Assembly (NCBI RefSeq): GCF_033110965.1
Contig: NZ_CP137003.1
Span: 2,232,001 to 2,296,000 of the forward strand
DNA: 64,000 nucleotides
Origin: Raineyella sp. LH-20
GTDB lineage: Bacteria > Actinomycetota > Actinomycetes > Propionibacteriales > Propionibacteriaceae
Reading direction: 5' to 3'
The position numbers and the translations under genes were made by a program. Position 1 is the first letter of the stretch; each line of letters starts with the position of its first letter. This document shows positions 6,419 to 31,881 of the stretch, one piece after another. A model generated the notes under the pieces. The model saw nothing but the letters and a program-made list of their open reading frames with translations, did no database searches and was not told where the DNA came from.

Positions 6419-6450
6419 GCCTGCAGTCCGGACCGCGGGTCGGCCGGCGG

Positions 6451-6822: not shown

Positions 6823-6854
6823 CGGGCTGTCGGTGGGTATCGGGGGTGGGCCGA

Positions 6855-8894: not shown

Positions 8895-8982
8895 GCGTTG
8901 TCCTCCTGGGGAAGCTGGATGCCTGGGGCGGGTCGGGGTGCTCCGATGCGCGCCGGGCCCAATCTAGTCGACTCGGCCCGGG

Positions 8983-9864: not shown

Positions 9865-10031
9865 GTGGGACAGGGTACTCGGCTGGTCGGCGGCATCCGG
9901 GGCCTCGCTGCGGCCGACCGGCGGGTGTTCGGGGTGGGGTCGGCGTCGACGCGACACGCCGGGCGGGACCCGGTGGGATGCTGGAGACAACGGCACGTCG
10001 ACGCGCCGTCACCCGTCGTCAGGAGGGCACC

Positions 10032-10244: not shown

Positions 10245-10252
10245 CTGGGCGG

Positions 10253-11152: not shown

Positions 11153-11253
11153 AGCACGACTCTACCCGGGGACCTCCCCCGGGGGTCTCCGGGCAGCCGG
11201 CCGGACCGTTCTCCGGCATGCCGCATTCCGTTGACCGTCACACCCCGCAGGTC

Positions 11254-11269
11254 GTCACACCGCTGAAAC
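11254..11269 (+). promoter_or_regulatory. Possible GlnR half-operator upstream of glnA2
   Basis: GTCAC, six bases, GAAAC (11254-11258 and 11265-11269) fits the published GlnR unit gTnAC-n6-GaAAC exactly. It ends 23 bp before the glnA2 start. Only one strong half is present, unlike the full array before glnA1, so binding would be weaker. Confidence 0.4.
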
Positions 11270-11292
11270 ACAATTAGCGGCAGACTGTCAGC

Positions 11293-12630: not shown

Positions 12631-12769
12631 CCGAGCGATACAGACTGAGGCGATACGGCCCGGGCCGAGGCGATACGGCCCCGGCCTCTGCGCCGCCGGG
12701 CCGCTGACCGAGGCCGCACCGCAGCGCTCACCAGCTGCCCGGTCGCTCCGCTGTCCGTCCCGACGGGGC

Positions 12770-13597
12770 TCAGCTGACCAGCGGCAGCAGGGGCGACAGG
12801 TCGGTGCGCAGCCCGGACGCGACGATGGCGTGCTCGGCCACAGCCTCGCCCCAGTCCCGACGGCCGGTCATCACCCGGAGGAACGTCGTCGGGTCGGTCT
12901 CGATCACGGCCGGCGGCGTGCCGCGGGTGTGAGCGGGCTCGGGGATGACCACCCCACCCGGCGTGGCCCGGGCCGGGTCGCCGATCTGCACCGCCGCGTA
13001 CGGCGGGACGCGCACCTCGATCGCCTTGCCCGGCGCCCGGGCGGCGAGGACGTCCGCCAGGGCTCGGGTCGCGGTCGCGGTGGCGTCGGACGGCGGGGGC
13101 GTCACGGTCCGGCCGGCCTGCTCCAGCGTGCGTGCCAGGTCGTCGTGGAGGAGCACGATCTCCAGGGCCCGGACCCGCAGGTAGTCGAGCAGGCTGAGCT
13201 GGCCGGCGCCGGTCCCGACCAGTGGGGGCAGGTCGCCGGCGCCCAGCAGGGCGAGGACGTCCGCGATGACGGCGACGAGCTGGGGAGCCAGCACCGTGCC
13301 CGGGTCGCTGCCCGCAGTGTCCACCGCCAGCTCGTAGCGGCGCTGCGTCGTCGAGGTCAGGTGTGCGGCATAGCGTTCCAGGGTGACCGGGCGGGTCGCC
13401 GCGGGGCACTGCAGCTGGGTGACGACCTGGGTCAGCCGCCACAGCGACCCCGCGCACAGCAGGCGTACGTCCCAGCCGGGCCGGACCGCGGGCAGCAGGT
13501 GGTCGGCCGGTTCGAGTCCGGCGACGACGTCCTGCACGCTCCGCAACGCTGCGGCGAGGGTGTGCCGCAGCTTCTCGGTCTGGCGCTGGGTCTTCAT
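12770..13597 (-). CDS. MDMPI-N/sterol-carrier-like family protein
   Basis: 275 aa from ATG 13597. The N-terminal half (PADHLLPAVRPGWDVRLL, then YLRVRALEIVLLHDDLA) has the DinB-like helical bundle of the mycothiol-dependent maleylpyruvate isomerase family, whose His-bearing helix 'R..E...H.DDL' is visible. The C-terminal half (RVPPYAAVQIGDP, PTTFLRVMTGR) looks like an SCP2-type domain. Proteins with this pairing are common in Actinobacteria; a mycothiol-linked or lipid-binding role is inferred. It is convergent with glnA2 and divergent from glnE. Confidence 0.7.
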   Translation of the reverse strand: MKTQRQTEKLRHTLAAALRSVQDVVAGLEPADHLLPAVRPGWDVRLLCAGSLWRLTQVVTQLQCPAATRPVTLERYAAHLTSTTQRRYELAVDTAGSDPGTVLAPQLVAVIADVLALLGAGDLPPLVGTGAGQLSLLDYLRVRALEIVLLHDDLARTLEQAGRTVTPPPSDATATATRALADVLAARAPGKAIEVRVPPYAAVQIGDPARATPGGVVIPEPAHTRGTPPAVIETDPTTFLRVMTGRRDWGEAVAEHAIVASGLRTDLSPLLPLVS

Positions 13598-13757
13598 CGT
13601 CGATGCCACCCGATCGACGCTACCGTGGCCGAGTGTCGGTCGTGTGGCGATGCGGAAAACGAGGGTCGAACGAGTGCCGTCCGGCGGTGCGTCGGCACGC
13701 GGGAGGGCGTGCGGCACGTCGCCGTCCGGCGGGGCGAGGGGACGTACGATGCGAGGC

Positions 13758-16721
13758 ATGGATCGGCTGGAGACGAGGGTGGGACGGCTGGCGCGGCTCG
13801 GCTTCGCCGAGGCGGGCCGCGCCGAGAAGCTGCTCAGTGCCTGGCCCCACGGTGCGGACGCCTGCATCGACCTGCTGGCCGACGCGGCCGATCCCGACCT
13901 CGCGCTGACCGGACTGCACCGTCTGGTCGAGGAGGACCCCGATCTGCCCGAGCGGATGACGGACGATCCGGACCTGGCCCGGCGCCTCATCCAGGTGCTC
14001 GGCGCCAGCCTCGGGCTGCAGCTCCACCTGATCCGGTTCCCCGGCGACATCGGCGAGTTGGCCGGCCGACTGGAGCGTACGCCCGCCGCCGCGCTGCGAG
14101 CGGATCTGCTGTCCGCCGTCGGCGCCGACGAAGGGGCGGTGGCCCCGGTCGCTGACCGGCTGAGCGGCGACGAACTGCGGATCGCCTACCATCGGGCGCT
14201 GCTGCGGATCGCTGCCCGCGACCTGTGCGCCACGGACCCGAGTGCCGTCCAGCCGTCGGTCTCCGCGGAACTGGCCGACCTTGCCGACGCGGTGCTGGAG
14301 TCTGCGCTGGCCATCGGGCGCGGAGAGATCGGCGCCGAGGAGTCCGCTCGGATCCGGCTCGCCGTGATCGCCCTCGGCAAGACCGGCGCCCGGGAGCTCA
14401 ACTACGTTTCCGACGTCGACGTGCTGTACGTCGTCGAGCCGGTCTGTGACGCCGCCGGTGCCCCGCTGGTCGGCGGCGACGCCCTGGCGACGCTGGGGAC
14501 GAAGCTGGCGTCGGCGTTGCAGCGAGTGTGCTCGGCCCACTCGGGGGTCGGCACCATCTGGCCGGTCGACGCGGCGTTGCGGCCGGAGGGCAAGGCGGGG
14601 CCGCTGGTCCGTACGTTGGCGAGCCACCGCACCTACTACCAGAAGTGGGCCAAGGCGTGGGAGTTCCAGGCCATGCTCAAGGCCCGTCCGGCCGCCGGTG
14701 ACCTGCCGCTCGGGCAGGCCTTCGTCGATCTGGTCGCGCCGATGGTGTGGCAGGTCGGTGGCCGCGAGGGCTTCGTCCACGAGGTGCAGGCGATGCGCAA
14801 GCGGGTCGTCCGCCTCATCCCCGCCAAGGAGCAGGGCCGGCAGATCAAGCTCGGCGAAGGGGGCCTGCGCGACACCGAGTTCACCGTTCAGTTGCTCGAG
14901 TTGGTGCACGGGCGGGTCGACGACAGGGTCCGCCAGGCAGGCACCCTGTCCGGCCTGGAGGCGCTGGTCGAGCACGGCTACGTTGGGCGCGAGGACGGCG
15001 CGGAGATGGCGGCGGCCTACCGGTTCCAGCGCACCATGGAGCATCGGGTGCAGCTCTACAAACTGCGACGTACGCACCTGATCCCCGAGGACGAGGCGGA
15101 CCTGCGCCGCCTGGGCCGGTCCCTCGGGTTCCGCCGTAATCCGGCCGAGGAGGTCGTTCGGGCGTGGCGGGAGAGCACTCGCCAGGTGATCGGACTGCAC
15201 CAGCGGGTGTTCTACTCCCCGCTCCTGGAGGCGGTGTCGCGGATCGCCACCGAGGAGTTGCGGCTCACCGCGGATGAGGCCGAGGACCGGCTGCGCGGTC
15301 TCGGCTACGCCGATCCGCGGGCGGCGCTGGCGCACCTGGCGGCGCTCACCCAGGGGATGACCCGGCAGGCCGAGATCCAGCGCCAGATCCTGCCGGCGAT
15401 GCTCGGCTGGTTCGCCGACGGTCCCAACCCGGACGCCGGGCTGCTGGCGTTCCGCAAGGTCTCCGAGGGGCTCGGCCGGACCTCCTGGTATCTGCGGGCG
15501 CTGCGGGACCGCGGCGCGACGGCCGAACGCCTGGCGCTGATCCTGTCGACCAGCCGCTACGCCACCGACATGCTGTTGCGCTCGCCGCAGTCGGTGCAGA
15601 TGCTCGCCGACGAGGCCGAGGAGCTGCCCCGGCCGTTGGAGAAGCTGGTCGCCGACTTCACCGCGACGGCGCTGCGCCACGACGACGCCCGGTCGGCGGC
15701 GGATGCGATCCGGGCATTGCGGCGGGCCGAACTGCTGCGGGTGTCGATGGCCGACATCCTGCACCGGATCGACGTCGAGGATGTCGGTGACGCCCTGTCC
15801 ACGGTGGCCGCAGCCACGCTGGAGGCGACCCTGCAGGTGGTCGCCCGGGAGGCTGCGGAACGCGGCGAGCCGCTCCCGGCGATCGCGGTGATGGCGATGG
15901 GCCGGTGGGGCGGCGGTGAGATGTCGTACGCCTCCGACGCCGACTGCATGTTCGTCATGGAGGACACCGACGACCCTGAACTGCAACGGCGCGCGATCGC
16001 GGCGATCACCCGGCTGCGGGAGGTGTTGCGCCGGCCCGGCGCCGATCCGGCGCTGGAGATCGACGCCGACCTGCGTCCGGAGGGCAAAGGCGGGCCGATG
16101 GTCCGCTCGCTGGAGTCCTTCCGCGCCTACTACCACCGGTGGTCGTCCACCTGGGAGGCGCAGGCGCTGGTCCGGTGCGCCGTCGGTGCGGGTGATCTCG
16201 CACTCGGCGAACGGCTGCTCGCCGAGATCGCGCCGTTGCGCTGGCCGGAGGGCGGGCTGACCGAGGCCCAGGTGCGCGAGATCCGTCGGCTCAAGGCCAG
16301 GATGGAGGCCGAGCGGCTGCCGCGCGGCGTCGAGCGGTCACGGCACACCAAGCTGGGTCCCGGCGGTCTCAGTGACGTCGAGTGGGTGGTGCAGCTGATC
16401 CAGTTGCAGCACGCGTACGAGCATCCGGAGCTGCGGACCACCCGGACCTTGCCGGCGCTGCGGGCGGAGCGTGACCTCGGGCTGATCAGTGCCGCGGACG
16501 CCGCGGTGCTGGAGGAGGCGTGGCTGTTGGCCAGTCGGATCCGCAACGTCATCATGCTGGTCAGGGGGCGGGCGTCCGACACGCTGCCCACCGACGGGGC
16601 GGACGCGGCGGCGGTGGCGGCGACGATGGGCTTCGAGGGATCGGGCCCGTTGAAGGCGCACTACGGCGAGGTCACCCACCGGGCGCGGGGCGTGGTCGAA
16701 CGGCTGTTCTGGGGCGACTGA
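13758..16721 (+). CDS. glnE: Bifunctional glutamine-synthetase adenylyltransferase/adenylyl-removing enzyme
   Basis: 987 aa from ATG 13758 (an in-frame ATG at 13749 is possible). Two nucleotidyltransferase domains are present: the first around KTGARELNYVSDVDVLYVV, the second around MGRWGGGEMSYASDADCMFV. Each has the paired Asp residues that bind metal and is followed by a HD-like helical domain (KLGEGGLRDTEFTVQLLELV and KLGPGGLSDVEWVVQLIQL). It attaches and removes AMP at the GS tyrosine according to nitrogen state. Its natural target is GlnA1 at 30404-31825, which carries that Tyr. Length and domain order are normal. Confidence 0.96.
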   Translation: MDRLETRVGRLARLGFAEAGRAEKLLSAWPHGADACIDLLADAADPDLALTGLHRLVEEDPDLPERMTDDPDLARRLIQVLGASLGLQLHLIRFPGDIGELAGRLERTPAAALRADLLSAVGADEGAVAPVADRLSGDELRIAYHRALLRIAARDLCATDPSAVQPSVSAELADLADAVLESALAIGRGEIGAEESARIRLAVIALGKTGARELNYVSDVDVLYVVEPVCDAAGAPLVGGDALATLGTKLASALQRVCSAHSGVGTIWPVDAALRPEGKAGPLVRTLASHRTYYQKWAKAWEFQAMLKARPAAGDLPLGQAFVDLVAPMVWQVGGREGFVHEVQAMRKRVVRLIPAKEQGRQIKLGEGGLRDTEFTVQLLELVHGRVDDRVRQAGTLSGLEALVEHGYVGREDGAEMAAAYRFQRTMEHRVQLYKLRRTHLIPEDEADLRRLGRSLGFRRNPAEEVVRAWRESTRQVIGLHQRVFYSPLLEAVSRIATEELRLTADEAEDRLRGLGYADPRAALAHLAALTQGMTRQAEIQRQILPAMLGWFADGPNPDAGLLAFRKVSEGLGRTSWYLRALRDRGATAERLALILSTSRYATDMLLRSPQSVQMLADEAEELPRPLEKLVADFTATALRHDDARSAADAIRALRRAELLRVSMADILHRIDVEDVGDALSTVAAATLEATLQVVAREAAERGEPLPAIAVMAMGRWGGGEMSYASDADCMFVMEDTDDPELQRRAIAAITRLREVLRRPGADPALEIDADLRPEGKGGPMVRSLESFRAYYHRWSSTWEAQALVRCAVGAGDLALGERLLAEIAPLRWPEGGLTEAQVREIRRLKARMEAERLPRGVERSRHTKLGPGGLSDVEWVVQLIQLQHAYEHPELRTTRTLPALRAERDLGLISAADAAVLEEAWLLASRIRNVIMLVRGRASDTLPTDGADAAAVAATMGFEGSGPLKAHYGEVTHRARGVVERLFWGD

Positions 16722-16788
16722 GGGGCGCGGGGCGGCGTACGACCACGGACATTGCATCGGGGGGAATGGCGGTGAGGGGGAAAATGCA

Positions 16789-16827
16789 TCGGGGGCCGGC
16801 GCCGTCCTGTGACGGCCCGGCCCCCGA
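16789..16827. terminator. Bidirectional hairpin between glnE and the Cys-rich miniprotein gene
   Basis: Arms TCGGGGGCCGGCGCCGTC (16789-16806) and GACGGCCCGGCCCCCGA (16811-16827), loop CTGT, one unpaired base. It lies between two convergent genes. There is no T-run, as usual in this GC range. Confidence 0.75.
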
Positions 16828-16842
16828 CGACTGACGTAGGGA

Positions 16843-16947
16843 TCAGGATTTTGCCTTGTGGTCGCAGTTCGGGCAGGTGCAAGCGGCTACCGTCGCTCCG
16901 CATCCGCACTGACACAGCGGCTCGGCATTCTTCGTGCTCTCACTCAT
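16843..16947 (-). CDS. Cysteine-rich miniprotein, metallothionein-like
   Basis: 34 aa from ATG 16947, with AAAGGGG placed 6-7 nt upstream as ribosome-binding site. Six Cys lie in 18 residues: CQCGCGATVAACTCPNC, then D-H-K. CxCxC and CxC/CxxC clusters of this kind bind Zn(II) or Cu(I) in small bacterial metallothioneins. It is too short for most gene finders. The strong start signal and the terminator just beyond its stop support a real gene. Metal choice and regulation cannot be told from sequence. Confidence 0.65.
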   Translation of the reverse strand: MSESTKNAEPLCQCGCGATVAACTCPNCDHKAKS

Positions 16948-17185
16948 CCGGTCCCCTTTCGTTGCGCCCTGCAGTTGTCCCAGTCTGCATCGGATACGGG
17001 GTGTCGGCGCGGGATGTGACCGGACTCTCGCTGCGGTCGCCCGTGGTGGTCGCCGGCCCGCCGGGGCGGCGTCCCGTCGTCCGGCACGGTCGGCCGCCGT
17101 GTGGTCCGGGGGTCCCTGGTGGACCGGGGTACCGTACGGGGGCGACAGCCTTCTCGCCGTCGATCCCACCCCCCAGGAGATCGTC

Positions 17186-20546: not shown

Positions 20547-21557
<1,011 letters not shown>

Positions 21558-21574
21558 GGATACTCCTTCGTTCG

Positions 21575-21597
21575 GTTTTCGACTATAAGGCGAAAAC
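21575..21597. promoter_or_regulatory. Putative NrtR operator between nadA and nrtR
   Basis: GTTTTCG (21575-21581) and CGAAAAC (21591-21597) form a perfect dyad with a 9-nt AT-rich centre, ACTATAAGG. It overlaps the likely -10 elements in both directions (TATAGT on minus, TATAAG on plus). Its position between a nad operon and nrtR is the standard place for NrtR control and autoregulation. Confidence 0.7.
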
Positions 21598-21613
21598 TGA
21601 GGTGAACTGTAGC

Positions 21614-22393
21614 ATGCGATCCGTGGGTGTCGACAAGGAGTCTGGCCGCGGACCGCTGCGGGACGATGCGGGGGTGGCGAAGTACCGGCACGAGGCGATC
21701 GCCGCGGTGCTGCAGGTCCGGGTCGATCCGGTCACCGGGGCGATGGTGCTGTCGGTACTGGCGACCCGCCGCCGACGGGCGCCGTACGCTCGGCAGTGGG
21801 CGCTGCCCAGCGGGCCGGTGGAGGTCGACGAGACGATCGGGCAGAGCGCCCGCCGGCACCTGGCGGCGAAGGTCGACCTTGCCGAGGTCGCACATCTCGA
21901 GCAGTTGGAGACGCTGAGCGACCCCGGCCGCGACCCGTACGACCGGACGATCGCCACCGCCTATGTGGGGCTGGTGCCGTGGACCAGCGACCCGGCGCTG
22001 CCGGCCGCGGCGGGCTGGCTGGCGGTCGACGCGTTGCCGGCGATGGCGTTCGACCATGCCGCGGTGGTCCGCCATGCGGTGGCGCGGATGCGTGCGAAGC
22101 TGTCGTACACCAACATCGGCTTCGCGCTGGCGCCGGAGGAGTTCACCATGGCCCAGTTGCGCGACGCGTACGCCGCGGCCCTCGGCCACGAGGTGAACGC
22201 GACCAACCTGCAGCGGATCCTGGTCCGGCGGGGACAGCTGGTGGCGACCGGCTCGTTGTCCGTGCCGGGCAGCGCCGGTGGGCGACCCGGGAAGGTGTTC
22301 CGGTTCGCGACCCGCGGGCTGACGGTGACCGACCCGTTCGCCACCCTGCGACCGGCGGGGGCGGCGGGCCACGGCGCGGCGCCCGGAGACTGA
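21614..22393 (+). CDS. nrtR: NrtR: Nudix-related transcriptional regulator of NAD synthesis
   Basis: 259 aa from ATG 21614, with ACTGAGG 11 nt upstream (GTG 21602 is an alternative). An N-terminal Nudix-like domain ([21 protein letters not shown]; the hydrolase Nudix-box Glu pattern is incomplete, as in regulators) is joined to a C-terminal winged helix ([36 protein letters not shown]). NrtR senses ADP-ribose and represses NAD genes. It is divergent from nadABC with the operator between, which fixes the assignment. Confidence 0.9.
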
Positions 22394-22400
22394 CTGAGTC

Positions 22401-22442
22401 CTGCTGTTGTCGGCCTGCTGTTGTCGGCCTGCTGTTGTCGGC
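22401..22442. repeat. Three perfect 14-bp direct repeats upstream of ppk2
   Basis: CTGCTGTTGTCGGC occurs three times head to tail with no spacing, ending 39 bp before the ppk2 start. Direct repeats at this distance could bind a regulator with helical phasing of 14 bp, or be a slippage product. It does not match the PHO box I know. Confidence 0.9.
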
Positions 22443-22481
22443 ACGGTGGCTTCCTGCAGGGTGCAGTGGAAGGATTGGTCC

Positions 22482-23654
22482 ATGACGGAGGCGACATCGG
22501 AGCACAGGAAGTTCGGCGCCGGGGCTCTCGGGAGCAAGGCGGGCAGCTGGACGTCGGAGAACGGCCATGTGAAGACCACCCATGGCCACGACAGGTCCGA
22601 TCGCGGCCGCTCTGACAACGCCGAAGCGGGCACTGGACACGACGCGGATGGGCACGGTGTGTCGGGCGACGGGAAATCCTCCGGCGGCGAGAAGTCCGGC
22701 AACGGCAAATCGGGGAACGGCAAATCCGGGAACGGCAAGTCCGGGAACGGCAAGTCCGGCAACGGTAAATCCGGGAACGGTAAATCCGGCAACGGCAATG
22801 GCAAGAACGGCAAGCACAAGGTGATGGATCGCAAGATCTACGAGTCCGAACTGCTACGTCTCCAGGCCGAACTCGTCGAGATGCAGGAGTGGGTCAAGAC
22901 CACCGGCCAGCGGATGGTGGTGATCTTCGAGGGGCGCGACGCGGCGGGCAAGGGCGGCGCGATCAAGCGGGTCAGTGAGTACCTCAACCCGCGCCTCACC
23001 GAGATCGTCGCCCTCCCGGCCCCCACCGAGCGGCAGCGTACGCAGTGGTACTTCCAGCGCTACATCGAGCACCTGCCGGCCGCCGGGGAGATCAAGCTGT
23101 TCGACCGCTCCTGGTACAACCGCGGCGGTGTCGAGCGGGTGATGGGCTACTGCACCCCCGACGAGTACGTCCGGTTCCTGCGTCAGTGCCCGATCTTCGA
23201 GCGGATGCTGGTCGAGGACGGGATCATCCTGCGCAAGTACTGGTTCTCGGTCTCGGCGGAGGAGCAGTACCGGCGGTTCGAGTCGCGGCTGACCGACCCG
23301 ATGCGGCGGTGGAAGCTGTCGCCCACCGACATCGAGTCGCTGACGAAGTGGGAGGACTACTCGCGGGCGAAGGACGAGATGTTCGTCCACACCGACCTGC
23401 CGGAGTCCCGCTGGCACGTGGTCGAGTCGGAGGACAAGCGGGCGGCCCGGATCAACATGATCGCCCATCTGCTCGCCTCGGTGCCGTACGAGCACGTCGA
23501 GCACCCGAAGCTCACCCTGCCGAAGCGTCCCGAGTCGACCGGCTACCGGCGGACCGACCGGGAGCTCCAGCACGAGGTGCCGGACTACGCCGCGAGCCTG
23601 ACCGACGAGAACGTCCCGTCGCCGTACGAGGACCCGGAGGACTTCGCCCGGTGA
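22482..23654 (+). CDS. ppk2: Polyphosphate kinase 2 with a KSGNG-repeat N-terminal tail
   Basis: 390 aa from ATG 22482. Residues about 1-115 are low complexity and include seven KSGNG units. The PPK2 domain follows: Walker A GRDAAGKGG, the lid DRSWYNRGGVERVMGYC, and KLSPTDIESLTKWEDYSRAKDEMF. Enzymes of this type use polyphosphate to phosphorylate nucleoside di- or monophosphates, or the reverse. The basic, Gly-rich tail is absent from the core family and could hold polyphosphate or nucleic acid, which is inference. A hairpin terminator follows. Confidence 0.93.
   Translation: MTEATSEHRKFGAGALGSKAGSWTSENGHVKTTHGHDRSDRGRSDNAEAGTGHDADGHGVSGDGKSSGGEKSGNGKSGNGKSGNGKSGNGKSGNGKSGNGKSGNGNGKNGKHKVMDRKIYESELLRLQAELVEMQEWVKTTGQRMVVIFEGRDAAGKGGAIKRVSEYLNPRLTEIVALPAPTERQRTQWYFQRYIEHLPAAGEIKLFDRSWYNRGGVERVMGYCTPDEYVRFLRQCPIFERMLVEDGIILRKYWFSVSAEEQYRRFESRLTDPMRRWKLSPTDIESLTKWEDYSRAKDEMFVHTDLPESRWHVVESEDKRAARINMIAHLLASVPYEHVEHPKLTLPKRPESTGYRRTDRELQHEVPDYAASLTDENVPSPYEDPEDFAR
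22692..22796. repeat. 15-bp coding tandem repeat, seven units (KSGNG)
   Basis: Unit AAATCCGGGAACGGC with synonymous variants (AAA/AAG, GGC/GGG, GGC/GGT). The synonymous drift shows the array is old enough to vary while the peptide is kept, which suggests selection on the protein. Confidence 0.92.
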
Positions 23655-23670
23655 GATCGGCCGGATGACG

Positions 23671-23707
23671 CCTGTCGGGCCCACCCGGAAAGGGCGGACC
23701 CGACAGG
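23671..23707 (+). terminator. Hairpin downstream of ppk2
   Basis: CCTGTCGGG (23671-23679) pairs with CCCGACAGG (23699-23707) around a 19-nt loop. It lies 16 bp after the ppk2 stop and between convergent genes. Confidence 0.65.
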
Positions 23708-23759
23708 GGCGCGATATCTCGATGTATCGGCGGCGGGGCGACGCGGCCGACGGGTCGGA

Positions 23760-24698
23760 TCAGTTCGCCGGCTGTGCGGAGAGTTCCCGGTCGAGGAGAT
23801 CGGCGACGGTGCCCGCGGGCCCCCATCCGAAGGCCGTCCGGAAACGTACGTCGTCGACCAGGAAGTCGCGGTCACTGAGATAGGCCATGTCGTTCGAGGC
23901 CCGCACCAGTGGGCTGACCCAGCCGGCCACGGTCAGCACCGCCGGCGGGAGCACCGCCGGTACGACCTCGTGCCCGGACCGCTGCGCCAACATCCCGCAG
24001 ATCTCCCGGCCGGTGACCGGCTCCAGCGCGGGCAGCAGCCAGGTCGGCTGCGACGTACGCTCCTCGCAGGTGGCCAGCGCGACCAGGGAGCGGGCGACCT
24101 CGTCGGCGGAGGCGTAGCTGTGTGTCGTGTCCGGGTCACCGATCCAGGCCAGCCGGGTGCGGCGGTCGCCGGCGCGGCCGGCCTTCTCCAGGGTGCTCCA
24201 CCGGAGCAGGGTGGTCTCGACGCCCGGGCCGAGGAAGTCGGCCGCGCGTGCCACCGTGATCGGCGTCCCGTCCGCGACGGCTGTGGTGAGGATGTCGGCG
24301 ACCTCGGCCCGGACCCGACCCATCCGGGAGCAGGGCGCGAACGCCGTCTCCTCGGTGATCGGCGCGGTGGTCTCCCCGTACGGGTAGCAGTTGTCGAGCC
24401 AGACCATCGGGACCTCCGCGGCGCGGACGGCGGCGATGACCGACCGGGTCAACGGACTCCACTGTGCGGTCCAGGTGGCGATGTCGTAGTGGAGACCGAG
24501 GGTGGCGACGACGACGTCGGCGCCGCGTAGGGCGGTGGCGAGCTGGTCGGGGTCGGCGGCGTCGACAGCGCGCCAGTCGACAGGCGGGGCGGTCGGCGGG
24601 CGGCGGGAGATCCCCACCACCTCGTGGCCGTCGTGGTGGGCGGTCTCGATGACACGGGCACCGATCTGGCCCGTGGCGCCGATGACGGCGATGCGCAT
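23760..24698 (-). CDS. NAD(P)-binding Rossmann protein (atypical SDR), last gene of the KS/AOS cluster
   Basis: 312 aa. Begins MRIAVIGATGQIG, the glycine-rich motif of atypical short-chain dehydrogenases and epimerases; VGISRRPP after the second strand suggests NADP. LDNCYPYGE (with a Tyr at the active-site region) and ARAADFLGPGV follow. The start lies 13 bp after the stop of the phosphopantetheinyl-transferase-like gene, so it belongs to the same transcript. In this context it could reduce the ketone left by the oxoamine synthase. That is inference; many atypical SDRs have no demonstrated redox activity. Confidence 0.75.
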   Translation of the reverse strand: MRIAVIGATGQIGARVIETAHHDGHEVVGISRRPPTAPPVDWRAVDAADPDQLATALRGADVVVATLGLHYDIATWTAQWSPLTRSVIAAVRAAEVPMVWLDNCYPYGETTAPITEETAFAPCSRMGRVRAEVADILTTAVADGTPITVARAADFLGPGVETTLLRWSTLEKAGRAGDRRTRLAWIGDPDTTHSYASADEVARSLVALATCEERTSQPTWLLPALEPVTGREICGMLAQRSGHEVVPAVLPPAVLTVAGWVSPLVRASNDMAYLSDRDFLVDDVRFRTAFGWGPAGTVADLLDRELSAQPAN

Positions 24699-24711
24699 GG
24701 TTGTGTTCCTC

Positions 24712-25353
24712 TCAGGGAGTGTCGGTGGGGCTGGGGGTCGCCACGCAGCAGGTCAGGTCGCCGAGGCACCGGTGGGTCAGCGATACGCCGGCGGCGAGCG
24801 GTGGACGAAGGGACGTGAGGCGGGGTCTGCCGGCGGGGGAGAGCAGGCGTCCGTTGGCGAGCTTGGTCAGGGCCTCCACCGCGGTCCAGACTGCCAGGTC
24901 GGAGGGTCCGTCCCCAAGGAGGGGAACGTACGGGCCGGCGGTGTCCCGGGCGCCGGCGTCGGCGCGGGCGTGGTCCCCCTCGTGGTCCGCGCACAGCAGG
25001 GCCCGTTCGGCCGGGGTGAGCACCAGGGGCAGTGCCGACCGGATCGAGTCGCCCCGGCCCTCCGCGCACAGGTCGAAGCCGATCCCGCCGTCCCGATCCG
25101 CCGGGCTGGCGGGACTCACCGCGAGCCCGACCCGGCCGGCCTCGTGGGACGCCGAGACCCGGTGGCGCCGGGTGCCGTCCCGCCCGACGATCTCGAGGAG
25201 CGTACGGTCGACCACCTCGATCCGGACCGGCGGGGCGCCCGACCCGGCCAGGGCCCCGGCGAGGCGCCCGAGCAGGGCCGGGTTGTCGGGCCAGTGACCG
25301 GGCCGGTCGGGAACGATCACCACGATCGCCCGACCGACCCGGGCCACCGTCAC
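24712..25353 (-). CDS. 4'-phosphopantetheinyl-transferase-like protein
   Basis: 213 aa from GTG 25353, overlapping the stop of the 1060-aa gene. Three family motifs occur in order: VSASHEAGRVGLAVS (SASH at 67-70), GIGFDL (90-95, in place of GvDiE) and WTAVEALTKLANG (156-168, in place of WxxKEAxxK). These enzymes load the pantetheine arm onto ACP domains, which suits the ACP encoded next door. The Lys of KEA is Val159, and the region between motifs 2 and 3 is poor in matches, so it is a divergent member that may be weak or altered in activity. Confidence 0.62.
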   Translation of the reverse strand: MTVARVGRAIVVIVPDRPGHWPDNPALLGRLAGALAGSGAPPVRIEVVDRTLLEIVGRDGTRRHRVSASHEAGRVGLAVSPASPADRDGGIGFDLCAEGRGDSIRSALPLVLTPAERALLCADHEGDHARADAGARDTAGPYVPLLGDGPSDLAVWTAVEALTKLANGRLLSPAGRPRLTSLRPPLAAGVSLTHRCLGDLTCCVATPSPTDTP

Positions 25354-28300
25354 GCAGACGCGCCGACGAGGGTGGCGTCGGAGATCTCGGCCAGCGCCTC
25401 GAGGGCGGCGTCCAGGTCCTCCCGGGTGTGCATGGCGGTCACGAACACCCGCAGCCGGGTGAGCCGTTCGGCCACCGCGGGCGCCAGGATCGGGTTGATG
25501 CTGATCCCCTTGCGGTAGAGGGCGTTCGCCACCCGGAGCGTACGGGCCGAGTCGCCGTAGATCACCGGCACGATCGGCGTGCCGGCGCCGTCGCCCCAGT
25601 CGAGACCGAGCCGGTCCACGCCCGTCCGGAAGTAGTCGGCGTTCGCCAACAGTCGCTGCACCCGCTCGGGTTCCCGGCGCAGCACCCGCAGGGAGGCCAG
25701 CGCGGCGGCGGTGTTGGCCGGCGACAGGCCGGCGCTGAAGACCAGGCTGGACAGGTTGTAGCGGAGGAACTCGACGAACCGGTGCGAGCCGCCGATGTAG
25801 CCACCGCAGCTGGCCATCGACTTCGACAGGGTGCCCATCAGGATGTCCACCTGCGAGGGCGAGACGCCGGACGCCTCACAGATGCCGCGGCCGGTCGCCC
25901 CCATGGTGCCGAAGCTGTGCGCCTCGTCCACCATCAGCAGCGCGCCGTAGCGTTCCTTCAGCGCGACGATCTCCGCCAGCGGGACGGTGTCGCCGTCCAT
26001 GCTGTAGGCGCCCTCGACGCAGATCAGCGCCCGCCGGTAGCTGCCGCGGCGACGTGCCAGGGCGGTGCCGAGGGCGTCCATGTCGTTGTGCGGGAAGCTG
26101 TGCCGGGCGGCCCCGCTCGCCCTGATGCCCTGCTGGATGCTGTCGTGGGCCAGGCTGTCGTGGAAGACGATGTCACCGGCGGCGACCACCTGCGGCACGA
26201 TCGACGCGTTGGTGGCGTGCCCGCCGACGAGCACCACCGCGTCCTCGCTGCCGAGGAAGTCGGCGATCTCGTGCTCCAGCTCGTCGTGCAACGGCCGATT
26301 GCCCGACAGGATCCGGGCGGCGGAGACCGAGGTGCCGTAGCGGTGGACGGCGTCGACGACCGCGGCCTGCACCTGCGGATCCTCCGACATGCCGAGGTAG
26401 TTGTACGAGCTGAACGAGATCATCGGGTGTCCCTCGATCTCGGTGTGGTTGGAGATGATCCCGTCGTGCGGCAGGTAGTAGGGGACCAATGCCTCGGTGG
26501 CCGCGAACTCCGCCTGCTTGCGTTCGAAGGCCGCCAGCTCCGGGAACGAGGCCAGGGTGCGCTCGCAGCTGTCGGGCAGTACGAAGGCCTCCGGTGCCGG
26601 GTGGGCGTCCATGTCCGGGGTCGGGCCGCTGCTCGCGCCGACCACCCGGGCCAGTTCCGCGGTGAGGTCGTCCAGGGTCCGTACGTTCTCCAGGGCGAGG
26701 TCGGTGGCCCGCAGGTCGGGCACCTGCTGGGACAGCCGGCGCAGCGTGTCGGCCATCAGCAGGGAGTCGAAGCCGAGGTCCTCGGCGAGCCGGCCGCCGC
26801 GGGCGATCTCGGCGATCGGGGACGAGGAGGCCTCGGCCATCGCGGTGAGCAGGGCGGTGCGGATCGCCTCGAGCGACACCGCGTCGGGCTGTGCCGCAGG
26901 TGCCGCAGCAGTCGTGGGGAGCGGGTCCGCGATCGGGAGGCCGCGGGTGGTGATCCGGGAGCGGTCGGCGGTGGTGTCGTGGGCGGTGGCCGTGGGGGCC
27001 GTGGGGGCCGTGGTGCGCTCGGTGCTGCCGGTCATCCGGGGCGTCCTGTTCGCGGTGGGGACGGGGTGTGCGGGCTGGGTCGGCGCCGGATCGTCGGCGC
27101 GGTGCGGCGCGACGGCGGACAGCTTGATCACCGAGTGCCGGTCGAGGCGTACGTCCTGCAGACGCCAGCGGGCGGCGACGCCGCTGTGGGCGAGCACCGG
27201 GGCGAGGTGGATCCCCGGCAGCGTCACGAACAACCGGGCCAGGCCATGCAGCACCGCGTCGCGGTTGTCGTTGGTGCCGCCGAAGCCGACACCGACGAAG
27301 GACGACTCGGGATGGTCGTGGCGCAGCATCCTGAGCAGCGACTCCCCGCCGGACAGCTGGACGACCACGTCCGGCGCCGCGGCGAGGATCTCGACGCCCG
27401 CTGCCCGGAAGTCCACCGGTGTGGTGACCTGGTCGGCCAACCGCTCCCGGATCGCCGCCGGGTCGGTCTCGGCGTGTCCGGACACCGTGGACACGAAATG
27501 CCCGGTGGGGGCGGCGAGGGCGGCGTCGTCCAGCAGCGCGGCGAAGTCGGGCCGGCTGGCGGCCATCAGCGGCGTGTGGAAGGGCCCCTGGGCGGGCAGC
27601 GGCGTGGCGAGGATGCCGGCCGCGCGACAGGCCTCGACGTACGGCTCGAAGGCCTCCTTGGTGCCGCCGTACACCGTCTGGTGCCCGTCGTTCCAGCAGG
27701 TCGGATACACACCGGGAGCCGACTCGGCCAAGGCGGCGGCCTCCGCACCGGAGCAGCGCAGCGCGACCATGCCGTACTCGCCGTCGGACAGCTGGGCGCG
27801 CATGATCCGGCCGCGTTCCGAGGCGAGGCGTACGGCCTCCTCGGCCGTCAAGCCGCCGACGGCGTGCAGCGCGGAGAACTCACCGACGCTGTGCCCGGTG
27901 GCCAGGCCGGGACGTACGCCCAGCCGGGCGAACAGTTCGGTCGCCGCGACGCCGAGCACGGTCAGCACGGTCTGGGCGGCATCGGTCATGTTGATCGCTG
28001 TGTTGTCGAGAGGCGCGCTGTCGAGAGGCGTACGGTCCTCGGTCTCGGGCCAGCCGGCCGTCATCAGGGGCTGCAGGCCGGGGACGACCGACGAGTCGAG
28101 GAGTTCGGCGCAGCGATCGGCGAACACCGGGTCGAGGGTGGCCAGGATGCGCTGGTCGCCGACCCGCTGGGCGCCCTGACCGGGGTAGAGGAAGGCCACC
28201 CGCTGCGGGGTGTCGGTCACCGTGGCGGCGTACCAACGCCCGGAGTCGGCGGCGTCGGTGGGATCGGCGGGGTCGTCGGGGAGGTCCGGCAGGTCGGGGA

Positions 28301-28532
28301 GCAGGTCGATCGCCCGGTGCAGCGCCCGGCGGGTCTCACCCACCGTGGACACGACGACAGCGAGACGGTGTCGACCGGGGGTGGCGACCGCGAGGCGCGA
28401 CTGCAGGTCGTCGAGGGAAGCGGAGTGGTTGGCGTGGTCGTCCAGGGAGGTCAGGACGGTCTCGCAGCGGGCCCGCAGGTCATCGGTGGTGGCGCCGGAG
28501 AGGAGCAGGAGGGAGGAGTGCGTCGGGTTCAT
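25350..28532 (-). CDS. Acyltransferase-ACP-alpha-oxoamine synthase fusion protein
   Basis: 1060 aa. It opens with a KS-AT linker-like segment (about 1-105). An acyltransferase follows (about 110-430; GQGAQ, nucleophile Ser215 in GHSVGE, His319 in GPFHTPLM), then a disordered Pro/Thr linker, an ACP (about 550-635; Ser590 in LGFDSLLMAD), and a PLP-dependent alpha-oxoamine synthase (about 690-1050; SFSSYNYLG, MVDEAHSFG, Lys904 in GTLSKSMASCGG). Expected chemistry: load an extender onto ACP, elongate with the separate KS, then condense the acyl-ACP with an amino acid and release an alpha-aminoketone. Related logic is known from PigH (prodigiosin) and SxtA (saxitoxin). Overlaps its neighbours at both ends (ATGA, GTGA). 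Confidence 0.9.
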   Translation of the reverse strand: MNPTHSSLLLLSGATTDDLRARCETVLTSLDDHANHSASLDDLQSRLAVATPGRHRLAVVVSTVGETRRALHRAIDLLPDLPDLPDDPADPTDAADSGRWYAATVTDTPQRVAFLYPGQGAQRVGDQRILATLDPVFADRCAELLDSSVVPGLQPLMTAGWPETEDRTPLDSAPLDNTAINMTDAAQTVLTVLGVAATELFARLGVRPGLATGHSVGEFSALHAVGGLTAEEAVRLASERGRIMRAQLSDGEYGMVALRCSGAEAAALAESAPGVYPTCWNDGHQTVYGGTKEAFEPYVEACRAAGILATPLPAQGPFHTPLMAASRPDFAALLDDAALAAPTGHFVSTVSGHAETDPAAIRERLADQVTTPVDFRAAGVEILAAAPDVVVQLSGGESLLRMLRHDHPESSFVGVGFGGTNDNRDAVLHGLARLFVTLPGIHLAPVLAHSGVAARWRLQDVRLDRHSVIKLSAVAPHRADDPAPTQPAHPVPTANRTPRMTGSTERTTAPTAPTATAHDTTADRSRITTRGLPIADPLPTTAAAPAAQPDAVSLEAIRTALLTAMAEASSSPIAEIARGGRLAEDLGFDSLLMADTLRRLSQQVPDLRATDLALENVRTLDDLTAELARVVGASSGPTPDMDAHPAPEAFVLPDSCERTLASFPELAAFERKQAEFAATEALVPYYLPHDGIISNHTEIEGHPMISFSSYNYLGMSEDPQVQAAVVDAVHRYGTSVSAARILSGNRPLHDELEHEIADFLGSEDAVVLVGGHATNASIVPQVVAAGDIVFHDSLAHDSIQQGIRASGAARHSFPHNDMDALGTALARRRGSYRRALICVEGAYSMDGDTVPLAEIVALKERYGALLMVDEAHSFGTMGATGRGICEASGVSPSQVDILMGTLSKSMASCGGYIGGSHRFVEFLRYNLSSLVFSAGLSPANTAAALASLRVLRREPERVQRLLANADYFRTGVDRLGLDWGDGAGTPIVPVIYGDSARTLRVANALYRKGISINPILAPAVAERLTRLRVFVTAMHTREDLDAALEALAEISDATLVGASA

Positions 28533-29884
28533 CTCTGGGTTCCTTCGGGATGGGAGACGAGCAGGTGGCCGTTGGCCCCGCCGAATCCGAAAGAGTTGAT
28601 GGCGATGCGCCGTACGTCGCGGTGGCGGTCGCGGTGGCCGGCCACGTGCAGCCGGGTCGACGCGAGGCCGGGGTGCACGCCGGTGCGCACCGGCGGCTGG
28701 GGCGGGACGATCTGGTGGCGGATCATCTGCACGGCTTTGACCGTCGACAGGGCACCGGACGCGGCCAGGGTGTGCCCGGCGATGGCCTTGACCGAGCCGA
28801 TCGGCAGGCCGGGGCCGTCGGGGTCGGGATCGGTGCCGGAGACCGAGAGGATTTCCTGGGCGTCACCGACGGTGGTCCCGGTGCCGTGACCCTCGATGTA
28901 GTCGACCGGCAGCTCCCCGCCGGCGCGGCGCCGGGCGGCGCGGATGGCGCGCACCTGTCCCTCGCTGGTGGGGGTCATGATGCCGGGCGCCCGGCCGTCG
29001 GAGCTGGCGCCCCAGCCCTCGATGACGGCGTAGATCGGGTCGTTGTCGCGTCGGGCGGCGTCGAGGTTCTTGAGCAGCAACAGGGCGCCGCCCTCCCCGA
29101 GGGTGAAGCCGTCGGCCGCAGCGGTGAAGGGCCGGCAGGTGCCGGTGGGGGAGAGGGCACCGACCTGGGCGAAGCCGATCAGGACGTCCGGAGTCAGCGC
29201 CACGTAGACGCCGCCGGCGAGGCACTCGTCGACCTCACCGGACTCGATCAGGGTGCAGGCGAGGTGGATCGCGGTGAGGCCGGAGGAGCAGGCGCTGTCC
29301 ACGGCGAACGAGGGCCCGTTGAGGTCGAACTGCTGCTGGACCACCGAGGGGATGATGTTGTTCAGCACCCCGGACATCGAATAGCCGCCGATCCGCTGGA
29401 TCCCGGACGAGGCCGCGGTCATCAGGCCCTGCTCCACAGCGGGATCGTCGACCCCGAAGGAGCCGTCGGCGGTCATCCGGGCGATGACCGGGGCGACCGT
29501 GACCAGCCGGTAGTCGTTCGAGCTCACCCCGACGATGGTCGCGATGCCGCGCCCGGCCACCGACTGCGGCGTCCGGCCGGCCCGGTCGAAGGTCTCCCGG
29601 GCGAGGGTGAGGGTGAGGCGCTGCTGGGGATCCATCCCCCGGGCCCGGGCGACCGGGATCCCGAAGCCCGCACGGTCCCACCCGTACGGATCCTCCAGCG
29701 CGGCCATGGTGTTGGTGTAGGAGGTAAACGGACGGCTGCGTTCGTGCGAGAGGACGGAGTCCTCGCGCCATCGATCGAAGGGGGCGGGGGCGAACTGCGG
29801 CACCGCGCCGGCCACGATCTGCCAGAATTCGTCGGCGTCGGAGGACCCGGCGGAGCGTGCGGAGAAACCAACCACTGCAATCAT
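28529..29884 (-). CDS. Stand-alone modular-PKS-type ketosynthase
   Basis: 451 aa from ATG 29884. A beta-ketoacyl synthase with the complete triad: Cys199 in DSACSSG, His333 in EGHGTGT, His371 in SVKAIAGHTLAASG. FTAAADGFTLGEGGALLLLK and INSFGFGGANGHLLVS complete the thiolase fold. It resembles the KS of type I PKS and PfaA-like systems more than FabF, yet is encoded alone; its usual C-terminal linker is found at the start of the next protein. The two genes look like one split PKS module. The stop overlaps the next start (ATGA). Confidence 0.92.
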   Translation of the reverse strand: MIAVVGFSARSAGSSDADEFWQIVAGAVPQFAPAPFDRWREDSVLSHERSRPFTSYTNTMAALEDPYGWDRAGFGIPVARARGMDPQQRLTLTLARETFDRAGRTPQSVAGRGIATIVGVSSNDYRLVTVAPVIARMTADGSFGVDDPAVEQGLMTAASSGIQRIGGYSMSGVLNNIIPSVVQQQFDLNGPSFAVDSACSSGLTAIHLACTLIESGEVDECLAGGVYVALTPDVLIGFAQVGALSPTGTCRPFTAAADGFTLGEGGALLLLKNLDAARRDNDPIYAVIEGWGASSDGRAPGIMTPTSEGQVRAIRAARRRAGGELPVDYIEGHGTGTTVGDAQEILSVSGTDPDPDGPGLPIGSVKAIAGHTLAASGALSTVKAVQMIRHQIVPPQPPVRTGVHPGLASTRLHVAGHRDRHRDVRRIAINSFGFGGANGHLLVSHPEGTQR

Positions 29885-30312
29885 GCGATTCTCGATTCTG
29901 GAGCGCGGACGAGCCACTCCTGCGCACCGCGGTGGTGGCCCCGGGGACATTCGGGACGTGCACGCCACTCCGTGTGGCCCTGCACCGGAGGCGACGTCGC
30001 AATCCACAGACGGGTCTACCGAGGCAAGGTGAACGTACTCAACCGGTAGTTGACGCCCCTGTGACGGGCGAGCCAACTCGGCTTGGTCACACGATCGGCG
30101 CGAAAGGTGTCCGAAAGGTCGCTGTGGAGCGGAGCGGCGGGGTGGTACGCGCTGCTGCGGGAACCTGTGGGTCGACTGGGAGTCGGCCGCGAGGGTCTCT
30201 CAGGAGCGTCTGGCGGTCGTTACCAGCCGTCTCGGTGGCCGGCGGGAGGCGCCTGGCGATGACGTCATCGGCGCCTGCCGGAACAGGGATGCAGTGGGTC
30301 GTACGACGACGA
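29885..30312. other. Leader region of the KS/AOS operon
   Basis: About 430 bp between the glnA1 terminator and the ketosynthase start. No gene is evident on either strand. It should hold the operon promoter. I could not single out a -10/-35 pair or an operator with confidence. Confidence 0.5.
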
Positions 30313-30369
30313 AAACGGCGGCTGACACTGGACGACGCCGAGAAGCGTTTCCAGGGTCAGCCGCCGTTT
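30313..30369 (-). terminator. Strong hairpin downstream of glnA1
   Basis: Two 19-nt arms (30313-30331 and 30351-30369), beginning AAACGGCGGCTGAC and ending GTCAGCCGCCGTTT, with one mismatch and a 19-nt loop. It lies 34 bp past the glnA1 stop and insulates the KS/AOS operon from glnA1, which is transcribed in the same direction. Confidence 0.85.
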
Positions 30370-30403
30370 CGGCGACTACCGGCAGGGGCTGAGAGCCCCC
30401 TGA

Positions 30404-31825
30404 TCAGATGTCGAAGTACAGATCGAACTCGTACGGGTGCGGGCGCTGACGCAGGGCGGCGATCTCGCCCTCCTTCAGCTCGATCCAGGTCTCGATCAGG
30501 TCCTTGGTGAACACGTCGCCGGCGAGCAGGTACTCGTGGTCCTCGCGCAGCGCGTCGAGGGCGCCCTCCAGGGAGGCCGGGACGGTGGCGATGTCGGCGT
30601 GCTCCTCGGGCGGCAGCTCGTACAGGTCCTTGTCGATCGGCTCCGGCGGCTCGATCCGGTTCTGGATGCCGTCGAGGCCGGCCAACAGCATGGCCGAGAA
30701 GGCCAGGTACGGGTTGGACGACGGGTCGGGGCAGCGGAACTCGACGCGCTTGGCCTTCGGGTTCGGGCCGGTGATCGGGATGCGGATGCAGGCCGAACGG
30801 TTGCGCTGCGAGTAGACCAGGTTGACCGGCGCCTCGAAGCCCGGCACCAGGCGGTGGTAGGAGTTCGCGCTCGGGTTGGTGAAGGCGAGCAGCGACGGGG
30901 CGTGGGTCAGCAGGCCACCGATGTACCAGCGGGCGATGTCGGACAGGCCGCCGTAGCCGTTCTCGTCGAAGAACAGCGGCTGGCCGTCCTTCCACAGCGA
31001 GGAGTGCACGTGCATGCCCGAGCCGTTGTCGTTGAAGACCGGCTTCGGCATGAAGGTGGCGGTCTTGCCGGCCTCCCACGCAGTGTTCTTGATGATGTAC
31101 TTGAACTTCATCACGTCGTCACCGGCGGACTGCAGCGTGTTGAAGCGGTAGTTGATCTCCTGCTGACCGGCGTTGCCGACCTCGTGGTGGGCCCGCTCGA
31201 GGGTCAGCCCGGCGCCCTCGAGGTTGCGGACCATGTCCTGGCGCATGTCGGCGAAGTGGTCGACCGGGGCCACCGGGAAGTAGCCGCCCTTGGTCTTCAC
31301 GTGGTAGCCACGGTTGCCACCCTCCTTGGAGGTGCCCGTGTTCCAGGCGGCCTCTTCGGAGTCGATGTGGTAGTAGCTCTCGTGTGCGTTGGTGTCGAAG
31401 CGCACGTCGTCGAAGATGTAGAACTCGGCCTCGGGGGCGAAGAACGCGGTGTCGGCGACGCCGGTCGACTTCAGGTAGGCCTCCGCCTTGCGCGCGATGT
31501 TGCGCGGGTCGCGGCTGTAGGGCTCCTTGGTGATCGGGTCATGGACGTAGAAGTCCAGGACCAGCGTCTTCGCCTTGCGGAACGGGTCGATGTAGGCGGT
31601 CGTCGGGTCCGGGAGCAGGGCCATGTCCGACTCGTGGATCTTCTGGAAGCCGGTGATCGAGGAACCGTCGAACGCCAGGCCTTCCTCGTACGCGTCCTTG
31701 TCGAACGACTTGGCGGGGACCGCGAAGTGCTGCATGACGCCGGGGACATCGCAGAACCGGACATCGATGACCTCGACGTCCTGCTCTTTGATATAGGCCA
31801 ACAGGTCGTCAGCTCCCTGGAACAT
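30404..31825 (-). CDS. glnA: Glutamine synthetase type I (GSI-beta), adenylylation-regulated
   Basis: 473 aa from ATG 31825, with GGAGG upstream (GTG/ATG codons further out are not needed). The main ammonium-assimilating enzyme. [48 protein letters not shown] and the adenylylation loop [11 protein letters not shown] with Tyr402 are present, so it is the GlnE substrate. Upstream, minus-strand TAGGCT (31866-31871) is a likely -10 element, and a four-half-site GlnR array lies at 31882-31919. Divergent from the RDD gene, as in M. tuberculosis. Confidence 0.97.
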
Positions 31826-31881
31826 TGCGCCTCCGAAGGGGTAGGTAGTGGTGAACTGCGTGAACAGCCTAGGAATCACGG

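What the first reader, a model, noticed from the sequence alone, without database searches (positions are those of the whole stretch)
23760..29884. Compact ketosynthase / acyltransferase-ACP-alpha-oxoamine synthase / PPTase-like / reductase cluster
Seen: four minus-strand genes in one apparent operon (3-4-bp overlaps between the first three, a 13-bp gap before the fourth). A PKS-type KS stands alone, its C-terminal linker begins the next protein, and that protein fuses AT, ACP and a PLP-dependent oxoamine synthase with all catalytic residues present. A PPTase-like protein and a Rossmann protein follow. Known: oxoamine synthases fused to ACP occur in PigH and SxtA. Inference: one elongation, decarboxylative release with an amino acid, then reduction to an aminoalcohol, giving a small lipid amine. 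I know of no described pathway with exactly this order.
Basis: partly seen in the sequence, partly recalled or inferred. Interest (0 to 1): 0.82.

Follow-up and report, generated by a model that had tools for sequence, protein, structure and literature searches.

The report
Split mini polyketide synthase making aminoketones
A four-gene actinobacterial operon encodes a very small polyketide machine that probably adds one two-carbon unit to an acyl chain and releases it onto an amino acid, most likely giving a small lipid-like pyrroline or pyrrole ring; it is an uncharacterised variant of known chemistry.

Summary
In detail: four minus-strand genes (KS; linker-AT-ACP-AOS; PPTase-like; SDR) overlap or abut as described and keep their catalytic residues. 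They occur together in 3 of the 4 genomes held for the genus, beside glnA. The synthase is not unique. Six loci in other actinomycetes carry relatives: three fused KS-AT-ACP-AOS genes, one with the same domains but an interrupted frame, one KS-ACP-AOS without AT, one KS-AT cut by a contig end. One of them is followed by a clear PPTase that resembles the PPTase-like gene; two have the same kind of SDR nearby; three have an MMPL transporter. Seen only in this genus is the split exactly between KS and its linker. That precedent, and the absence of any ketoreductase domain, favour a 4-keto-2-alkylpyrroline or pyrrole over the proposed aminoalcohol. The SDR lacks the usual Tyr-Lys pair and shows no sequence link to a RedK-like domain, so its step is inference. 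No product is known; eight paper searches found no description. New variant of a known kind.

The parts
28529..29884 (-). Stand-alone PKS-type ketosynthase, 451 aa; Cys (DSACSSG), His (EGHGTGT), Lys and His (GSVKAIAGHT) present; carries a roughly 30-residue insertion shared with the fused S. anthocyanicus KS
   Evidence: Pfam PF00109/PF02801; alignment A3; tree
25350..28532 (-). Linker-AT-ACP-AOS protein, 1060 aa
   Evidence: Pfam, translation
28215..28532 (-). KS-AT linker region, residues 1-106 of the second protein
   Evidence: alignment with KS-AT linkers of L046, L079, L082 and the post-KS region of L081
27330..28193 (-). Acyltransferase domain (residues 114-401): GHSVGE, conserved Arg, GPFH at the HAFH position
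   Evidence: PF00698 7.1e-34; alignment
26658..26852 (-). Acyl carrier domain (residues 561-625), DLGFDSL
   Evidence: PF00550 0.0032, below cut-off; alignment with ACPs of L046 and the RedL-like protein
25353..26555 (-). Alpha-oxoamine synthase domain (residues 660-1060), TLSKS lysine
   Evidence: PF00155 1.6e-50; BioF/SPT models, below their cut-offs; trees
24712..25353 (-). Divergent PPTase-like protein, 213 aa, shorter at the N-terminus than the PPTase of L082; SASHEAG / IGFDLC / WTAVEALTK stretches largely kept in three genomes
   Evidence: alignment A1; sub-threshold ACPS hits in two orthologues; homologue in L082 with PF01648 1.2e-10
23760..24698 (-). Atypical SDR (Epimerase/NAD_binding_10 type), 312 aa; MGxxRA in place of YxxxK
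   Evidence: Pfam; alignment A4
30404..31879 (-). Glutamine synthetase, upstream boundary (not part of the pathway)
   Evidence: PF00120; syntenic in G044, G061, G022
22407..23654 (+). Polyphosphate kinase 2, convergent; downstream boundary of the operon (not part of the pathway)
   Evidence: PF03976 1.7e-101

Best explanation
A minimal type I PKS-AOS synthase, split into two proteins. The PPTase-like protein loads pantetheine on the ACP. The AT charges the ACP with malonate. The free-standing KS takes an acyl starter (from type II fatty acid synthesis or an acyl-CoA; source unknown) and extends it once. No reductive domain follows, so the beta-ketoacyl-ACP goes to the AOS, which condenses it with a small amino acid, losing CO2, to give a 1-amino-2,4-diketone. 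As in RedL and RedN/PigH this should close to a 4-keto-2-alkylpyrroline (3-hydroxypyrrole tautomer), which the SDR may reduce towards a hydroxypyrroline or pyrrole. Shown: genes, domains, catalytic residues, relatives, co-conservation. Inferred: substrates, number of extensions, amino acid, ring closure, SDR step.
For: Domain content KS + AT-ACP-AOS with no KR/DH/ER. The AOS falls in one 16-row clade (100/100) with the RedL-like AOS of G070 and AOSs that lie beside PKS genes as in SgaAB, apart from PigH/RedN. It is sister to the AOS of a fused S. anthocyanicus KS-AT-ACP-AOS in that tree (98/97); with four more actinomycete rows added the trio falls in an unresolved group of eight with all five (91/91). 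KS and second protein, searched apart in plasmids, both give that S. anthocyanicus protein as the top row (303 and 485 records with a match). Relatives at six loci outside the genus. PPTase homologue directly after the synthase in L082, same DLC motif, over Pfam's cut-off. Same kind of SDR directly before the KS-ACP-AOS gene in L081 and about 4.6 kb from the KS in L083. In the own genome the PF00109 search shows, besides this KS, one 419-aa KS that groups with type II enzymes and one thiolase; the PF01648 search shows only a 119-aa AcpS. So this is the only PKS seen there, and the 213-aa protein the only other PPTase candidate I know of. RedL/RedK chemistry as described in PMC12654105 and PMC11188435 (passages).
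Against: No metabolite is known. RedL-type proteins have an acyl-AMP ligase and a loading ACP that are absent here, so the starter route is open. The SDR shows no sequence relation to the RedK-like domain fused to the RedL-like protein of G070 (best E 0.05), lacks YxxxK, and its model is poor (mean pLDDT 58.8). The ACP is below Pfam's cut-off. The PPTase-like protein has no significant family hit and a poor model (pLDDT 42.8), and AcpS might load the ACP instead. AOS residues do not settle the amino acid: the SAAR stretch, shared with L046 and L079, differs from both the SgaB-like rows (mostly SASR) and the RedL-like row (AATP). MMPL transporters beside three relatives suit a longer lipid as well as a pyrroline.
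Confidence: 0.5

Rival explanations
1. One reading: the released aminoketone is reduced by the SDR to an aminoalcohol, a sphingoid-like lipid amine, with the beta position reduced in trans or the chain not elongated at all.
For: The AOS lies in the same clade as AOSs that sit beside PKS genes as SgaB does; P. fluorescens SgaAB makes sphinganines (PMC12134224, passages and section 9). I did not have the SgaB sequence itself in the tree. MMPL transporters next to relatives suggest a lipid.
Against: The two Sga-like PKSs scanned carry KR, DH and ER domains (L048, L057); here there is none. A KS would serve no purpose if an unextended fatty acyl group were condensed. The SDR lacks the usual catalytic pair.
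Confidence: 0.22
2. The SDR reduces the beta-ketoacyl-ACP in trans before the AOS acts, giving a 4-hydroxy-2-ketoamine that may remain open or cyclise differently.
For: The SDR gene is co-conserved with the synthase in the genus and lies near relatives in L081 and L083; polyketide ketoreductase SimC7 is among the low-TM fold matches of a poor model.
Against: In 4 of the 6 loci outside the genus no such SDR was found in the stretch held (L046, L079, L080, L082), so the synthase core does not seem to depend on it there.
Confidence: 0.15
3. The operon is decaying and makes nothing in this genus.
For: KS read in two frames in G061; fast PPTase-like gene (dN/dS 0.54); odd AT motif GPFH; absence from G022.
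Against: KS dN/dS 0.09 and intact catalytic residues in G000 and G044; AOS 94% and 87% identical in the two orthologues.
Confidence: 0.08

Closest known systems
RedL + RedK (2-undecylpyrrole branch of undecylprodiginine, Streptomyces coelicolor)
   Same: Non-reducing KS-AT-ACP-AOS module order (seen in the RedL-like protein of G070); one elongation then decarboxylative condensation with an amino acid; separate reductase; AOS in the same clade as that RedL-like protein
   Different: The RedL-like protein is one chain with an acyl-AMP ligase and loading ACP; here glnA and PPK2 flank the operon; SDR not detectably related to the RedK-like domain
Fused actinomycete KS-AT-ACP-AOS proteins (S. anthocyanicus plasmid WP_331764634.1; L079, L082; L080 with interrupted frame), function not known to me
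   Same: Same domains and order; KS 38-41%, AOS or ACP-AOS 44-57% identical; shared KS insertion in the one aligned
   Different: Not split between KS and AT; none of the four has the SDR in the stretch held; three of the four lie near an MMPL transporter
SgaA-SgaB (sphinganine synthesis, Pseudomonas fluorescens MYb115)
   Same: PKS feeding an AOS; AOSs of like gene arrangement fall in the same clade
   Different: Like-arranged PKSs scanned here are fully reducing; AOS is a separate gene; product is a very-long-chain sphinganine (PMC12134224)
PigH / RedN with PigJ / RedX (bipyrrole branch of prodiginines)
   Same: KS protein working with a separate ACP-AOS protein; beta-ketothioester condensed with serine to a pyrrole ring (PMC11188435, passages)
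   Different: PigH/RedN has tandem ACPs and no AT (PMC3870968, passages); its AOS is in another clade

Membership tests
RedL/RedK alkylpyrrole pathway | KS-AT-ACP-AOS core without reductive domains | tested here: met
   compared with the RedL-like protein; the window core is split in two proteins
RedL/RedK alkylpyrrole pathway | acyl-AMP ligase and loading ACP in front of the KS | tested here: not met
   none in the two synthase proteins; genes flanking the operon are glnA and PPK2
RedL/RedK alkylpyrrole pathway | RedK-type reductase | tested here: inconclusive
   an SDR is present but BLASTP to the RedK-like domain of P0005 gives E 0.05
RedL/RedK alkylpyrrole pathway | 4-keto-2-alkylpyrroline product | not testable with these tools
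   needs metabolite data
SgaAB sphinganine cluster | reducing monomodular PKS plus separate AOS gene | tested here: not met
   no KR/DH/ER and AOS fused to AT-ACP; Sga-like PKSs L048 and L057 do have KR, DH and ER
PigH/RedN | tandem ACP-AOS without AT | tested here: not met
   one ACP and an AT; separate AOS clade
Alpha-oxoamine synthase family | fold-type I PLP domain with catalytic lysine and family-level similarity | tested here: met
   PF00155 1.6e-50; best PDB relatives are serine palmitoyltransferases, 2.7e-68; TLSKS motif
Sfp-type PPTase (213-aa protein) | PF01648 match above cut-off | tested here: not met
   no hit for P0002; E 0.31 and 0.19 for its orthologues
Sfp-type PPTase (213-aa protein) | homology and motif order shared with a certain PPTase | tested here: met
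   tblastn 33% over 127 aa, E 1.8e-5 (five loci as database) to L082, whose protein hits PF01648 1.2e-10 and PF17837 8.5e-9; aligned motifs; profile comparison with two other PPTases E 0.0009 but probability only 23%
Classical SDR ketoreductase (P0001) | YxxxK catalytic pair | tested here: not met
   M/K-G-x-x-R-A in 7 of 7 aligned proteins

The most novel reading that the evidence does not exclude
Actinomycetes hold an unrecognised family of minimal PKS-AOS synthases whose end product is a free alkyl-pyrroline or pyrrole lipid, exported by MMPL proteins in some members, independent of prodiginines; in one genus the synthase has split at the KS-linker boundary so that a bare KS works in trans with an AT-ACP-AOS partner.
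Probability: 0.35. Interest if true: 0.7.

Novelty: new variant of a known kind. Interest (0 to 1): 0.5.

Why it matters
It gives the smallest PKS-AOS gene set seen here (two synthase proteins, a PPTase-like protein, a reductase-like protein) in a 3.6 Mb genome where a KS search found no other PKS, so one deletion should reveal the product. If the ring reading is right, alkylpyrroline chemistry known from prodiginines exists on its own. The natural KS/AT split is also a ready test of how a KS without its linker recognises its partner.

Tried and rejected
Structure prediction of the PPTase-like protein gave an unusable model (mean pLDDT 42.8) and no fold search was run on it. The SDR model was half confident (58.8); its fold matches show only an SDR/Rossmann relation. 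PDB sequence searches found nothing meaningful for the PPTase-like protein. A plasmid search with it found no match at E 0.1 in 72,556 records. Viral contigs: no relative. The single genome-contig scan used patterns drawn from one sequence and returned 18 AOS relatives; no match to the PPTase-like protein or the SDR was found in them; it cannot be read as absence. In 23600-30500 no promoter-like site and one plus-strand terminator-like site inside the synthase gene were found, about what shuffles give. The minus-strand ORFs 22854-23684 and 21554-22834 were rejected as operon members: neither has a Pfam match at 1e-5 and both overlap PPK2 on the other strand. A direct RedK homology was tested and not found. 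Amino-acid choice from active-site residues was considered; the residue meanings are recalled, so I drew no conclusion.

Rows dropped: the AOS tree left out duplicate loci and hits under 280 aa; the KS tree left out duplicates and hits under 230 aa, so G061 is there with its longer KS piece only; the tree used 24 of the 48 earlier rows plus four new ones.

Paper searches for an existing description, none of which showed this operon: 0 papers; 22; 7; 10; 4; 74, 25 listed; 6; 4. Only open-licence PMC papers are covered, and most were seen as listings only.
Full report
What is there. The window lies at 2232001-2296000 of a 3.63 Mb single-contig genome. Four minus-strand genes run from 29884 to 23760: a 451-aa KS, a 1060-aa linker-AT-ACP-AOS protein, a 213-aa PPTase-like protein and a 312-aa SDR. 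The first two junctions are 4-base overlaps (ATGA, GTGA) and 13 bases precede the SDR. Upstream is glnA in the same direction, with 519 bases between; downstream is PPK2 on the other strand. The operon therefore ends with the SDR.

Domains. Pfam gives KS, AT and AOS with strong scores; the ACP is below the cut-off (E 0.0032) but carries DLGFDSL; the SDR is of the Epimerase/NAD_binding_10 kind; the 213-aa protein has no match. No KR, DH or ER is present. The KS keeps its Cys, two His and Lys, the AT its GHSVG, Arg and His, with GPFH where the S. anthocyanicus and RedL-like ATs read HAFH, the malonyl-type motif as I recall it, the AOS its PLP lysine. The N-terminal 106 residues of the second protein align with the KS-AT linker inside fused relatives, so the genes are split between KS and linker.

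Conservation in the genus. Four genomes of the genus are held, own included. G044 and G061 have the same four genes in order beside glnA; G022 has no match, and a LigD gene lies between its glnA and its PPK2. Beyond the SDR, G061 keeps the window's neighbours while G044 does not show them in the stretch held, so the four genes behave as a unit. dN/dS against G044: KS 0.09, AT-ACP-AOS 0.28, PPTase-like 0.54, SDR 0.38, with glnA at 0.06 as a yardstick. The G061 KS is read in two frames, which may be a sequencing error or real damage.

Distribution. Of 97 family genomes, 51 match the second protein at 1e-40, but a match over its whole length occurs in 3, all of this genus (in G044 as two pieces); one more genome (G070) matches over ACP-AOS, and the other listed rows match over the AOS region only (up to 8 candidates per genome were scored). 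With the KS as query, 1 of 60 genomes of the phylum (the own genome) passes 1e-60 (up to 28 scored), and 5 of 197 of the class, own included, pass 1e-70 (up to 8 scored). These are lower bounds. The four other genomes gave five loci. L079 and L082 hold fused KS-AT-ACP-AOS genes. L080 has all four domains in order but not in one open frame. L081 holds KS-ACP-AOS without an AT. L083 holds KS-AT running off its contig. A sixth locus is the 1607-aa KS-AT-ACP-AOS on a Streptomyces anthocyanicus plasmid, the top plasmid row for the KS and for the second protein separately. The KS of that protein shares a roughly 30-residue insertion with the window KS that the RedL-like KS and the one Sga-like KS aligned lack.

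Neighbours of the relatives. L082 has a 228-aa PPTase directly downstream (PF01648 1.2e-10). It is the only place outside the genus, among the loci searched, where the 213-aa protein found a match (33% over 127 aa, E 1.8e-5), and it has the same position and DLC motif. L081 has a P0001-like SDR (33.6%) whose frame ends at 11378, just before an ATG at 11363 that opens the KS frame; L083 has one (34.7%) about 4.6 kb from its KS, plus an AMP-binding enzyme. MMPL transporters lie near the synthase in L046, L079 and L082, 3 of 6 loci. None was seen among the neighbours scanned in L080 (7 ORFs), L081 (8) and L083 (4), which are not all the genes of those stretches.

Trees. The AOS sits in a 16-row clade (100/100) with the RedL-like AOS of G070 and AOSs lying beside PKS genes as in SgaAB, away from PigH/RedN, and is sister to the S. 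anthocyanicus AOS (98/97). With four more actinomycete rows that close tie dissolves: S. anthocyanicus pairs with L079, and the genus trio is one branch of a group of eight at 91/91, short of the tool's mark for firm support. The KS tree gives S. anthocyanicus as partner weakly (89/52). The label RedL-like for G070 rests on its order AMP ligase-ACP-KS-AT-ACP-AOS with a C-terminal stretch I read as Rossmann-like (no Pfam hit there), on neighbours whose best NCBIfam matches are RedH/PigC and PigJ, though under the curated cut-offs, and on the report that redL and redK are fused in Streptomyces MBK6 (PMC8102152, passages). The Sga-like label rests on gene arrangement and, for two loci, on KR, DH and ER domains in the PKS; the P. 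fluorescens sequence itself was not in hand.

Mechanism. RedL is described as extending dodecanoate once, condensing the beta-keto thioester with glycine through PLP and cyclising to 4-keto-2-undecylpyrroline, which RedK turns into 2-undecylpyrrole; RedX/PigJ with RedN/PigH do the like with serine (PMC12654105 and PMC11188435, passages). The window operon has the same core and no reductive domain, so the beta-ketone should survive until release and the amine should close on it. That is the ground for preferring a pyrroline over an aminoalcohol. In the own genome the KS family search shows one further full-length KS, which groups with type II enzymes, and a short hit inside a thiolase; the PF01648 search shows only a 119-aa AcpS. 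The starter is therefore probably a fatty acyl group from type II synthesis or CoA, and the 213-aa protein the likely ACP-loading enzyme. These last points are inference; AcpS could also do the loading, and PF01648 did not detect the 213-aa protein itself.

Against. There is no product. The starter route is unknown and the RedL-type ligase and loading ACP are missing. The SDR lacks YxxxK, as do all seven proteins aligned, and is not detectably related to the RedK-like domain. The relatives' MMPL transporters suit lipids generally. P. fluorescens SgaAB makes sphinganines (PMC12134224, passages and section 9) and like-arranged AOSs lie in the same clade, so a lipid amine cannot be excluded.

Novelty. 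A 2013 survey of PLP domains in assembly lines lists AOS domains after carrier proteins, including A-CP-KS-AT-PLP and CP-CP-PLP in Streptomyces griseoviridis (PMC3870968, abstract, outline and passages, with the Aminotran_1_2 rows of its Table 2). I did not see KS | AT-ACP-AOS in those rows or in my eight paper searches. The kind is known; the split, the minimal gene set and the MMPL-linked relatives make it a new variant.

Noticed in passing
L027 (G070) 3-17095: A prodiginine-type cluster in another genus of the same family: best NCBIfam matches RedH/PigC and PigJ (below curated cut-offs), an ACP-AOS protein grouping with PigH, and a RedL-like megasynthase with a RedK-like tail.
   Followed up: partly
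L081:7854-11363: KS-ACP-AOS protein without an AT domain that keeps the KS linker and an ACP motif, next to a P0001-like SDR and a TetR regulator.
   Followed up: partly
L025 around 12000 (G061): The KS orthologue is read in two overlapping frames, possibly a sequencing error or a damaged gene.
   Followed up: no
L069 (G022) 11237-13525: Where the operon lies in this genome, between glnA and PPK2, G022 has a LigD (DNA ligase/primase) gene.
   Followed up: yes
window 11293-12630 and 30404-31879: Two glutamine synthetase genes in one window.
   Followed up: no
L062:5040-9077 (Streptomyces sp. NBC_00158 plasmid): A protein annotated as a fusion of SDR oxidoreductase and PLP-dependent aminotransferase near a ketosynthase gene, another AOS-PKS arrangement.
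   Followed up: no
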